DNA from: Bacillota bacterium
GTDB lineage: Bacteria; Bacillota; Sulfobacillia; Sulfobacillales; Sulfobacillaceae
DNA: 64,000 bases
Assembly: GCA_021820965.1 (NCBI GenBank)
Contig: JAKACZ010000010.1
Coordinates: 1 to 64,000 of the forward strand
Direction of reading: 5' to 3'
Shown here: positions 25,119 to 28,657 of the stretch, in pieces
How positions within the stretch are numbered: position 1 is the first letter of the stretch
Layout of the letters: every line of letters begins with the position of its first letter
The notes under the pieces: model-generated
The model's input: the letters and a program-made list of their open reading frames with translations, nothing else
Told to the model about the DNA's origin: nothing
Database searches by the model: none
Made by a program: the position numbers and the translations under genes

Positions 25119-25904
25119 AACGGCCAATGACCCAGCGGGAAGGAATGCGTTGGCCCCCGCAACCGCGCGTGTTTGGCGCTATAACCCTTATCGCCGGATT
25201 TTGGGTCTGATAGTGGCCGCCTACCCGGACCGACGCGCTGTGGCTTGGTTTCGGCGTGGGGCGTCCCATTTCTCAGTCGGGCATCGAGTCTCCACCATGG
25301 ATGACCTGTGTCGGTGATGATTGTGCAACGCCTCCGGTTCATCCCTAAATCAAACGTGACGACGGGCAGACCGGGATTCTCTTGCCGTTGCTGTCTGGCT
25401 TGCTCGAGCGTTTCCCAAGCGAAACGTAGGTAACGTGGGGCTCGTTTGGCGTATTGGACAGCGATAATGGTACCCACGTCCAGTACGCGCAGTAGACGAA
25501 CAGGCGCGATTAGTCATTTCCTTGCACGATGGCGGATTCGTTCTTTAGGTTCCGTGGACTGTTCGCTCTGCCCACGAGTCTCAATGCACACTCGTTCCCA
25601 GGGCAGCGATCCACGAAAAATACTCGCACACTTTTCTTTCCCTGAACTCGTATAACCCCTTAATGCGCCCCAATAGCCGCTGATGAACTTGGTAAACAAT
25701 CTCAGTCACGTCCGCGAGTACGTGGGGCGAAAGGGTCCAATCAAACCGGTTGCTATCCACCAGCATGACCTTCTCATCAACGTTATTGGATCGTGGTACT
25801 GACCCACGGCGGCTCCGACTGACCCACGGCGGCTCCGACGACGTGGCTCCTTGGTTGTACGCAGCCTCCGCGTTCGTATGGCTCAGATCAAATTCCTGGT
25901 TAGA
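25119..25904. other. Gene-poor region after the gas-vesicle cluster
   Basis: No gene is assigned. Two minus-strand stretches look partly protein-like but match no family: about 25230-25477 (RFAWETLEQARQQRQENPG) and 25581-25770 (LADVTEIVYQVHQRLLGRIK). They may be parts of a gene broken by mobile-element activity. At 25800-25839 the 20 bases TGACCCACGGCGGCTCCGAC occur twice in tandem. Confidence 0.4.
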
Positions 25905-26176
25905 AAAACCTATGATAATCTCTTTTGGCTTTTCTCGGCCCCTCACGGGACCCGCAGTCCTCACAGGATTCGTCTGCTCGGGGGTGACTTCCGCCCCATC
26001 GCGTGGGGATGTTTTTCCCCCACGCACCGCTCAAGATCCCGGCAGGAGAAGGATGGCAGGAAACTCCCATCGGTGTCCCGTCGGTGGTGCCCTGAGCCCC
26101 AGTGTTACTGGGCCCTCATCAAGATGCCCCGTCGCTCCTTTCGCCACGTGGTGGCGACGGGGGAATGAGATGTTGG
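25905..26176 (-). ncRNA. Candidate omega RNA / right end of the TnpB element
   Basis: TnpB elements encode their guide RNA at the 3' end of and just past tnpB. Here, directly after the tnpB stop, a strong structure forms at 26127-26162: CCCCGTCGC pairs with GCGACGGGG around an inner CCACGTGG. A second perfect stem lies at 26001-26025 (GCGTGGGG/CCCCACGC). The sequence is GC-rich and then falls to AT-rich, unlike a coding region. The exact boundary and the guide segment cannot be fixed by eye. RNA function is inferred from position and structure. Confidence 0.45.
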
Positions 26177-27727
26177 TCATTCGAAGAATAACGTCTTGCG
26201 ATACCCTAACCAGGCACTCAAATACTGATGGTGCGATGCCAACGTCTTCGTCATGATCCGTTTAATCCGAGCCCATGCACTCCAATCATTTTTCCGATAA
26301 GTGGGGTCGTTCCATTGATCGCGGTCTTGCATCCAGAGCCGCAAGGCTTTAGGGACGTTTTCCCGGCGGACTTTCCCGGGACTCCCGTCGGAGCCCGGGA
26401 CTTTCAGTCCGCCTCGTCGCCCGATCACGAGGGCCGCGGCGTGATGCACGCTAATCCCGTATTGCGGCTGATACTTGAACCGCCCGATAATCGAGGTATA
26501 AGCCGGTTTGACTTTCCGCAAGGTGACGCCTTCCCGCGCGGCCTGTCGTTCGACCGCCGTCAGCAAGGCCCGGTAATTAAACTGGTGCGTCACGCGGTTA
26601 AACTTGGCGCTCACATCCCGATCATGGATGAACTGCAAGTCTTCCACGACCAGTCCTGCTCGACGAGCCTTAGCCCACTGAACGGTCTCGACCGCGAGAC
26701 CTCCCACCAACGCGTCGCGTTGGGTCGATCGGACATCGAAGAGACGGGGGTCCCCGATCGTCGCGAAGGCGTGGGGATTGCCGTTCGACAACACGTGACA
26801 GAGAGCCAAAAAGGTGCGGTTGGTATCCACGCCCACCCAGCCCTGCCGAGGATCGGTCTGGATGGGCGCAGGGGCTTCTTCGACGGTAATCCGCACCTGA
26901 TACCGGCCTTGCCGCCGCAAGATTTCCACCTGATACGGATCACCCGCGGCGAGTGTCCGCCGCAGCAAGTCTTCATAGTGCCGCCCGTTGACCTGCCCGG
27001 TTTTCTTGGACACCTTGCGCGCAATGTAGAGCGGGATCTCCAGTTTCTCATACCGAGGAACTTTGGCGTCGGGTTTGCCCGGTTTGAGGCTATCTAACGA
27101 GATTTCTAACAGCCAATGGTCGGCGCCTTCCCGCACGCGCAAGAGCGGGTTGCCCTGTTTGGTGCGATCCCCCCGCGCGGACAGCCGACCATTGCGGCTC
27201 TCCTCCCAGGCTTCCCGCCACGCCTGCTGCCGTGCCTGTTCGGCGATGGGGTCATCGAGGATCTTGAACCGCTCCAACCAGCGTTTCTTGGTGCCAAACA
27301 CCACGGGAGGAAACGTGCCGGCCTCGACATGCTGTTGGTAAAACCCCTGCCGTTCTTCTTGGTGCGCCAGCTTCCGTTCTTGTCCCGCAATCCGTCGCCC
27401 ATTGGGATGGAGGGATCCTCGGAGTGCGGTCAACCGTTCGCGCGTCTTTTTGGCGCGCTGTGTCCATAAGGCGAGCCCGTCCTGCATGGCTTGATGGCGG
27501 GCCCGGATGAGGTCTTGGGCCTCCTGTACCGCATCTTTGGCATAGCGTAAAGGCAGCGTGGTGTCACTCGGCAGATGACGTTCTAAAGCGCCCACGTTGG
27601 ACAGTCCTTCAACCCAGCGCTTGAACGCAAACCGGAGCATCAAGCCATACTTGCGCATCAGGCGGCGTAATACCGTGTCGTGTTCGGGTGTGACGTCGGG
27701 CAACACGCCAAAAATGGTCGTTTTCAT
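26177..27727 (-). CDS. tnpB: TnpB-like (IS605 OrfB) RNA-guided nuclease, divergent
   Basis: A 516-residue protein of the TnpB/IS605 OrfB class. RuvC-I is WVGVDTNRTFLALCHV with Asp301, and RuvC-II is GLVVEDLQFIHDRDVSAKFN with Glu362; after it comes the RuvC-III area YGISVHHAAALVIGRRG near residue 425, where the usual aspartate (DxNAAxNI) is not evident. The CxxC zinc finger of canonical TnpB is also missing. Both changes are seen in some long TnpB-like groups of thermophiles as I recall, but activity is doubtful. The start is ATG 27727 with GGAGTG upstream; the open frame to 28141 is Arg/Gly-rich and not supported. No transposase TnpA is intact nearby. It ends at structured sequence that may be its omega RNA. 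Confidence 0.8.
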   Translation of the reverse strand: MKTTIFGVLPDVTPEHDTVLRRLMRKYGLMLRFAFKRWVEGLSNVGALERHLPSDTTLPLRYAKDAVQEAQDLIRARHQAMQDGLALWTQRAKKTRERLTALRGSLHPNGRRIAGQERKLAHQEERQGFYQQHVEAGTFPPVVFGTKKRWLERFKILDDPIAEQARQQAWREAWEESRNGRLSARGDRTKQGNPLLRVREGADHWLLEISLDSLKPGKPDAKVPRYEKLEIPLYIARKVSKKTGQVNGRHYEDLLRRTLAAGDPYQVEILRRQGRYQVRITVEEAPAPIQTDPRQGWVGVDTNRTFLALCHVLSNGNPHAFATIGDPRLFDVRSTQRDALVGGLAVETVQWAKARRAGLVVEDLQFIHDRDVSAKFNRVTHQFNYRALLTAVERQAAREGVTLRKVKPAYTSIIGRFKYQPQYGISVHHAAALVIGRRGGLKVPGSDGSPGKVRRENVPKALRLWMQDRDQWNDPTYRKNDWSAWARIKRIMTKTLASHHQYLSAWLGYRKTLFFE

Positions 27728-28657
27728 TCCGACACTCCTTCCTGAGCTCCGGTCGCCAGGGCTTGCCGCCCGGTGGCAGCGAGCTTGGTGCCCCCGCCTT
27801 GGCCGGCAATCCGTGCGGAGACCGCGTCGTGATCGCGATCCACTCGTCCACCAGGTCTTGTGGGTCATCCTGTACCGTGTGCTCCCTGACGATAATGGGC
27901 GCGCCGACGGCGTGCCGAACGGTGTCGAGATCAGCAACATCCCCCCGCGCGCGGCAATCCCGGTATTCTCCGACCCCCATGCCGACGGGTTCTGGCCTTC
28001 CGCCCAGAGCCCAATCCCGCGCTTCTCATTCCTGGCCCGGCCTCCTGTCTCCGTTCTGATGGACTGGCGCCACGCCGATCCTTGCTCCCATGCGATGTGA
28101 TGGGCCCGCGTGGACATCCTTCCCCAAGATTTGGACCACACTTCGGCCTCGAGCCTCCGCGTTGTGGCACCCCTGACCCCCTGAAGGAAGTCAGCGGTCT
28201 GCCGCCGTACACGTGCCTTTTCGATCCGGACGACGCCTCTTTGTCAATACATATGTTTGAACACAGTGTATCATGGTCCCCGTGCAGAGTCAATCCACCA
28301 TCGGAGTGGTGTCGAACGATTTGTCCTCTGGAATGGTCATGGATCCACGCAACGTTCCACGCTCGCATGGTGGCTGACACCCTGATGCCGCCACGCATTG
28401 AGAAATGTATGGATGGGGGTGGACTTACCGCGCCGCCCAAATCAATCAGGGCAAGACTTTCAAGTTGTTCTTGCTCGTGGAAAGTCGAGAGTATTATACC
28501 ATCTTTTCATAGATAACCATATATTAGTAGTAAGCAGTTTGAACCTCCCAATGCCACGACTCTTGAAACCGCGGATTTTCCGGGACAATTTGCGATGACG
28601 AGAATCTCCAGCCGCGTGTTGGCGCTCATGCGCAGGGTCATCACGTCGACTCACAGG
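27728..28657. other. Upstream region of tnpB, no certain gene
   Basis: About 900 bases without an assigned gene. Long overlapping open frames on both strands reflect high GC. It holds a good minus-strand promoter (28265-28293) and an AT-rich block near 28490-28540. Confidence 0.4.
28265..28293 (-). promoter_or_regulatory. Sigma-A-type promoter reading leftward
   Basis: On the minus strand TTGACT (28293-28288) is followed after 17 bases by TACACT (28270-28265), a good -35/-10 pair. It would transcribe toward tnpB, whose start lies about 540 bases downstream, so a long leader or a lost gene lies between. TTGACA occurs again some 24 bases further. Confidence 0.5.

What the first reader, a model, noticed from the sequence alone, without database searches (positions are those of the whole stretch)
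26177..27727. Divergent TnpB without zinc finger or a clear RuvC-III aspartate
RuvC-I (D301) and RuvC-II (E362) are kept, but the third acid is not visible (VHHAAALVIGRR) and no CxxC pair exists. It could be a nuclease-dead RNA-guided regulator, like known TldR proteins, or a family with a different metal site.
Basis: partly seen in the sequence, partly recalled or inferred. Interest (0 to 1): 0.55.

Follow-up and report, generated by a model that had tools for sequence, protein, structure and literature searches.

The report
Transposon RNA-guided protein with histidine site
A mobile DNA element in a bacterium related to Sulfobacillus carries a TnpB-like RNA-guided protein in which the third DNA-cutting acid is a histidine, a trait shared by most of a widespread family, which suggests an altered but working DNA cutter rather than a dead one.

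Summary
The 516-aa gene (window 26177-27727, minus strand) has RuvC-I D301 and RuvC-II E362, no CxxC pair, and no acid in RuvC-III. The missing acid is a family trait, not decay. H428 sits exactly where sister clades carry Asp. In 65 representatives of the zinc-finger-less family (at most 85% identical), column 428 is His in 54 and Asp in 11, never anything else; E362 is kept in 65 of 65 and D301 in 64 of 65. Asp occurs in two separate places on the tree. The gene belongs to an IS607-type element with defined ends (25895-28548), serine-recombinase TnpA beside many relatives, different flanks at each copy, and a 282-nt reRNA with strong covariation. tnpB is under purifying selection (dN/dS 0.11-0.17). 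Natural His at the matching site occurs in active Thermus and Deinococcus RuvC and in Cas9 (papers). Best reading: an RNA-guided nuclease with a D-E-H metal site, probably favouring Mn2+. A binding-only protein like Cas12m2 is the main rival. The TldR reading is poorly supported. Cleavage is untested.

The parts
25895..28548 (-). IS607-type insertion element, 2654 bp; left end GGAGGTTCAAACTGCTTACT..., right end ...TTTTTCTAACCAGG
   Evidence: Right end shared by 29 distinct element ends (one, L039, deviates) and followed by differing flanks; left end shared by other copies
26177..27727 (-). TnpB-related protein, 516 aa, zinc-finger-less, D-E-H
   Evidence: dN/dS 0.11-0.17 against copies in relatives
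26825..26827 (-). RuvC-I aspartate D301 codon (GAT)
   Evidence: D in 64 of 65 representatives
26819..26821 (-). N303 codon, asparagine of the D-x-N motif
   Evidence: N in 64 of 65 representatives
26642..26644 (-). RuvC-II glutamate E362 codon
   Evidence: E in 65 of 65 representatives
26414..26458 (-). RuvC-III motif, residues 424-438 GISVHHAAALVIGRR
26444..26446 (-). H428 codon (CAT), at the column of the third aspartate
   Evidence: H in 54 and D in 11 of 65 representatives
27825..27983 (-). remnant of serine-recombinase TnpA (53 residues, 45% identical); the rest is decayed
   Evidence: tblastn with the intact TnpA of L030
25895..26176 (-). reRNA scaffold / right end, 282 nt downstream of the stop codon
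   Evidence: 98.2% of cells paired, covariation score 0.201 against 0.106 shuffled, 0 of 500
25875..25894 (-). putative guide segment (about 20 nt of host flank next to the right end)
   Evidence: position relative to the conserved end; no second match in the host genome at up to 3 mismatches over 18 nt

Best explanation
The gene is the tnpB-type gene of an IS607-family element. Its protein binds the reRNA made from the element's right end, and host sequence beyond that end serves as guide. With this it recognises the empty donor site and cuts it with its RuvC domain, which helps keep the element, as proposed for TnpB. Its metal site is Asp301-Glu362-His428 (perhaps with Asn303) instead of Asp-Glu-Asp. 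His428 would hold metal A at the start of the RuvC-III helix, as H143 does in Thermus RuvC and H983 in Cas9, so activity probably depends on or favours Mn2+. Shown here: element ends, reRNA structure, conservation, fold. Inferred: RNA binding, cleavage, metal preference, role at the donor site.
For: Residue 428 is His (54) or Asp (11) and nothing else in 65 representatives; E362 65 of 65, D301 64 of 65, N303 64 of 65. On a tree built without the RuvC-III columns, Asp members lie in two places, a least of 2 changes. Only one other column differs clearly by class, G342 against W. The fold model (pLDDT 82) has a helix at 427-437 and matches Cas12f1 Z 17.5, ISDra2 TnpB Z 15.1 and T. thermophilus RuvC Z 12.7. 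RuvC proteins have Asp or His at their third site: His in the PDB sequences of T. thermophilus and D. radiodurans. H143D raises Tt-RuvC activity (PMC3834835); D. radiodurans RuvC H139 is essential and linked to Mn2+ use (PMC9601230); SpCas9 H983 holds Mg and H983D stays active (PMC8112549). The reRNA covaries. tnpB dN/dS is 0.11-0.17. IS607-type TnpA was found in the fetched DNA of 26 of 54 His and 3 of 11 Asp representatives.
Against: No cleavage was tested. Cas12m2 with His in its RuvC triad (at the first acid) binds one Mg and does not cut, and changing the triad to DED did not restore cutting (PMC10442227). E. coli RuvC D138H loses Mg activity and keeps weak Mn activity. RuvC and Cas9 keep a further Asp three residues after this His; here that residue is A431. 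The profile comparison with RuvC was weak and did not reach RuvC-III (probability 5.7%), so the link of H428 to RuvC D138/H143 rests on motif pattern and helix position. No model coordinates were available, so ligand distances could not be measured. The window tnpA is decayed. No empty site was found for the three copies tried.
Confidence: 0.6

Rival explanations
1. Binding-only RNA-guided protein: the D-E-H site holds one metal and grips the displaced strand without cutting, as in Cas12m2, so the complex blocks transcription or regulates transposition of its own element.
For: Cas12m2 HDD site binds one Mg and does not cut (PMC10442227). EcRuvC D138H loses Mg activity (PMC9601230). Repeated inactivation of TnpB and Cas12 nuclease domains is reported (PMC13418256; PMC12669027).
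Against: D301 and E362 are kept in 64 and 65 of 65 representatives, whereas Cas12m2 changed two of its three. His and Asp interchange at residue 428 with no other residue seen. Natural His at this site is active in RuvC and Cas9.
Confidence: 0.22
2. The third acid is supplied from elsewhere, for instance the conserved Glu456 of the C-terminal extension, and H428 has a second-shell role.
For: E456 is invariant in the 29-row alignment A2, nearly invariant in the 33-row alignment A3, and present in 60 of 65 zinc-finger-less rows.
Against: E456 is present in the Asp variants as well, so it does not compensate for His. The Mycobacterium, Streptomyces, Photobacterium and Pseudomonas rows lack it. 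The model is of low confidence around residues 440-470.
Confidence: 0.09
3. A TldR-like domesticated nuclease-dead regulator of a host gene.
For: The third acid is not present; tnpA of the window copy is decayed.
Against: Many copies with different flanks, so guides are not kept; 27 matches in the host genome, mostly fragments; the guide matches only its own flank; IS607 TnpA beside many relatives; D and E kept.
Confidence: 0.04
4. A relic: this copy is a leftover and the His has no function.
For: tnpA remnant only; most other copies in the genome are broken.
Against: tnpB frame intact, dN/dS 0.11-0.17, the same His in intact elements of other species and phyla. Pairwise dN/dS covers shared history and does not prove that this single copy is still selected.
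Confidence: 0.05

Closest known systems
NCBIfam TIGR01766, 'IS200/IS605 family accessory protein TnpB-related protein'
   Same: Scores above the curated cut-off; the same name is given to His and Asp relatives on plasmids
   Different: A domain model that says nothing on the catalytic site; I know of no characterised member (recall, not a search result)
IS607 TnpB such as ISFba1 TnpB (PMC11061315, passages read)
   Same: IS607 element, tnpA often broken, reRNA at the right end, RuvC domain
   Different: ISFba1 TnpB is 387 aa with D194, E290, D371; here 516 aa, no zinc finger, His at the third site; no RAGATH-18 or other Rfam match
Cas12f1 and ISDra2 TnpB
   Same: Same overall fold over about 290-320 residues; sequence profile match to Cas12f, E 2e-5
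   Different: Zinc finger and third Asp absent here; no CRISPR array was searched for or seen at this locus
RuvC of Deinococcus-Thermus, and Cas9 RuvC-III
   Same: Natural His where other members have Asp (PMC3834835; PMC8112549)
   Different: They keep another Asp three residues later; they are not TnpB-family proteins
Cas12m2 (type V-M)
   Same: His within the RuvC triad of a Cas12/TnpB relative (PMC10442227)
   Different: His is at the first acid and the second is Asp; binding-only
TldR
   Same: TnpB-like, acid missing from the RuvC site
   Different: Here no tie to a host gene was seen, guides differ per copy, D and E are kept

Membership tests
TIGR01766 TnpB-related family | score above curated cut-off 32 bits | tested here: met
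   39.2 bits
Canonical TnpB (guided_TnpB NF040570) | score above curated cut-off 100 bits | tested here: not met
   48.8 bits
Canonical TnpB | D-E-D catalytic triad | tested here: not met
   D301, E362, H428
Canonical TnpB | CxxC zinc finger between RuvC-II and RuvC-III | tested here: not met
   no CxxC; TSIIGRFKYQPQYG instead
Canonical TnpB | TnpB/Cas12f fold | tested here: met
   ISDra2 TnpB Z 15.1, rmsd 5.0, 287 residues
Canonical TnpB | structured reRNA at the element right end | tested here: met
   covariation; RNA binding itself not tested
Canonical TnpB | RNA-guided DNA cleavage | not testable with these tools
   needs biochemistry
IS607 element | serine-recombinase TnpA with N-terminal HTH | tested here: met
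   intact in relatives' copies such as L030, L086, L088, L089; only a remnant in the window copy
TldR | loss of RuvC catalytic residues | tested here: inconclusive
   only the third acid is changed, to His, and that change is shared by most of the family
TldR | stable link to a non-transposon gene with a kept guide | tested here: not met
   different flanks at 28 of 28 ends that show a flank; guide matches only its own flank
Cas12m-type binding-only effector | binds target without cutting | not testable with these tools
   needs biochemistry

The most novel reading that the evidence does not exclude
A large clade of transposon RNA-guided effectors, spread over several bacterial phyla and archaea, has His in place of the third RuvC aspartate and no zinc finger, and works as a distinct catalytic class: tuned to Mn2+, or limited to nicking or single-strand cutting, with Asp and His exchanged at least twice in evolution.
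Probability: 0.4. Interest if true: 0.7.

Novelty: new variant of a known kind. Interest (0 to 1): 0.5.

Why it matters
TnpB and Cas12 enzymes are treated as D-E-D nucleases, and a missing third acid is easily read as a dead nuclease. Here a widespread family holds His at that site with Asp and Glu intact and with natural Asp sisters. That makes a direct test possible: does D-E-H cut, nick or only bind, and does the metal decide? It also warns against calling effectors dead from one missing acid, and may point to a compact zinc-finger-less guided enzyme with another metal preference.

Tried and rejected
TldR: rejected as best reading for the reasons under rivals. Known RNA family: Rfam gave nothing relevant (one sub-threshold frameshift-element match on the plus strand). 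phmmer of the single protein against PDB sequences: no match up to E 1; the profile search reached Cas12f. Profile comparison with RuvC: weak, stops before RuvC-III. Viral contigs: no relative confirmed. Empty sites: flanks of three copies (L086, L100, L090) joined and searched in 34 genomes; no match ran across a joint; the source copies hit themselves as two halves, and one right flank hit a repeated sequence. A residue that changes together with His/Asp and could compensate: only G342/W, not an acid. Literature: searches showed no paper on a TnpB clade with His at the third site (listings seen; only passages of the cited papers were read); the library lacks many journals. From recall, a 2023 PNAS survey of TnpB/Cas12 diversity and the first TldR paper exist; I did not read them, so I do not claim that the trait is unpublished.

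Biases and dropped rows: the genome-contig scan used two patterns, one of which demands His, so its counts favour His; the other sources were profile, family and tblastn searches. For one search I kept ORFs of at least 300 aa from the 132 rows, left out five by name (a duplicate of the window gene and four fragments or wrong-frame pieces), and left out six extra pieces (two Rhizobium fragments and four Thermaerobacter frames; one of these frames shows a His motif). The 126 rows with at least 120 core residues were then cut to 72 at 85% identity, 7 of them canonical TnpB. MAFFT misplaced the RuvC-III column in most canonical rows (it lined up a residue two places before the Asp), so I set their label to D by hand, from their sequences. 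For the reRNA alignment A6 I used 20 of the 29 right ends found, leaving out nine with insertions, gaps or weak similarity; an earlier alignment A5 had wrong ends for two rows and was redone. In one search some of the 16 comparison copies are the same copy fetched twice (for instance L034 and L093), so they are not independent.

Full report
What is there. The window gene at 26177-27727 (minus) encodes 516 aa. It passes the NCBIfam cut-off for TIGR01766 but not for guided_TnpB. RuvC-I is GVDTN (D301), RuvC-II is VVEDLQF (E362), and RuvC-III is YGISVHHAAALVIGRR. There is no CxxC pair.

Relatives were collected from the host and 60 relatives, from 398 genomes of the phylum by profile, from species genomes by pattern (one of its two patterns demands His), and from plasmids and phages; canonical TnpB came from a TIGR01766 search. 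The zinc-finger-less members share TSxxGxxK...AAxxxIxRR, with a few departures. One search shows that residue 428 is His in most and Asp in a sister group ('TKDTAAAYVIARR'), with no gap between them. After reduction to at most 85% identity there are 65 zinc-finger-less rows: 54 His and 11 Asp. E362 is kept in 65 of 65, D301 in 64 of 65 (one archaeal row has His), N303 in 64 of 65. Apart from 428, only residue 342 differs clearly between the two classes.

Tree. With the RuvC-III columns left out, the family stands apart from seven canonical TnpB rows with full support. The least number of changes inside the family is two. There are few columns (139) and 13 of 69 inner branches are open, so the direction of change is not known. 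FastTree on an earlier set also placed the first Asp clade among His clades.

Hosts. His variants occur in Sulfobacillus and its kin, other Bacillota including Priestia, gammaproteobacteria, Rhizobium, Streptomyces, a Mycobacterium and archaeal MAGs.

Element. The right end is ...GGTTTTTYTAACCAGG in nearly all of 29 distinct copies; 28 show sequence beyond it, and all 28 differ. The left end GGAGGTTTAA is shared. Both ends carry GG, as expected for a serine recombinase that uses a 2-bp core (inference). The window element is 25895-28548. Intact TnpA with the YARVST motif is present in several relatives' copies; the window keeps a 53-residue remnant. IS607-type TnpA was detected in the fetched DNA of 26 of 54 His and 3 of 11 Asp representatives; among those with at least 900 bp upstream or from an annotated record, 21 of 37 and 3 of 10. 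Many loci were too short to tell.

reRNA. The 282 nt between stop codon and right end fold into 11 helices over 20 copies. 98.2% of cells pair; 18 of 76 pairs have changes on both sides; the covariation score is 0.201 against a shuffled mean of 0.106 (0 of 500 as high), and 0.025-0.044 when the partners are slid. The copies are related, so the shuffle is not a probability; the slid control supports the structure. Rfam has no relevant match. The window guide has no second match in its genome at up to 3 mismatches over 18 nt.

Selection. dN/dS of the window gene against copies in relatives is 0.11-0.17 where it could be computed (13 of 16 comparisons; three were saturated; some copies are duplicates).

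Structure. AlphaFold2 with 33 rows: pLDDT 82, pTM 0.71; a helix at 427-437 begins just before H428. Foldseek and VIA-align list Cas12f, TnpB and RuvC.

Mechanism. In RuvC the third active-site residue is Asp in most species and His in Deinococcus-Thermus (passages in PMC3834835; sequences). H143D raises Tt-RuvC activity. In D. radiodurans RuvC, H139A abolishes activity and the His is linked to Mn2+ use, while E. coli D138H keeps only weak Mn2+ activity (passages in PMC9601230). SpCas9 H983 superposes on H143 and D138 and holds Mg ion A (passages in PMC8112549). The pattern H-x-A-A-A-x-V-I of this family fits D/H-x-x-D-A-L-A-I of RuvC with H428 at the D138/H143 place; this is my hand alignment. 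Fanzor SpuFz1 uses N385, two residues after its first Asp, as a metal ligand (passage in PMC10432273), which makes N303 a possible ligand. Against activity: Cas12m2 with HDD does not cut (passages in PMC10442227), and RuvC and Cas9 have one more Asp than this family.

Verdict. The protein works most likely as a TnpB-like RNA-guided nuclease with a D-E-H site. It is filed under the TnpB-related TIGR01766 family, not under canonical TnpB, because the triad and the zinc finger were tested and not met. New variant of a known kind. Whether the trait is already in print could not be settled with the searches made.

Noticed in passing
L236 906-2285 and 2300-3781: Ammonifex degensii plasmid pADEG01: an annotated iscB ends 14 bp before a His-variant TnpB-like gene, so two kinds of RNA-guided effector genes stand side by side.
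   Followed up: no
L219 2608-4407: Thermus phage Lalka27a: an Asp-variant gene is followed at once by a 90-bp stretch annotated as CRISPR with two copies of a repeat of nearly 30 nt; it could belong to the guide RNA or be a minimal array.
   Followed up: partly
L038, within the right-end RNA region: A copy in a relative carries tandem copies of a unit of nearly 50 bp inside the reRNA region.
   Followed up: no
window 25798-25837: Perfect 20-bp tandem duplication ACTGACCCACGGCGGCTCCG, two copies, just outside the right end.
   Followed up: no
L133: One archaeal relative has His also at the first acid (GIHINP), giving H-E-H.
   Followed up: no
window gene residues about 440-449, and L002, L003: A short insertion (PGSDGSPG) just after RuvC-III is seen in the host's own copies and not in most relatives' copies.
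   Followed up: no
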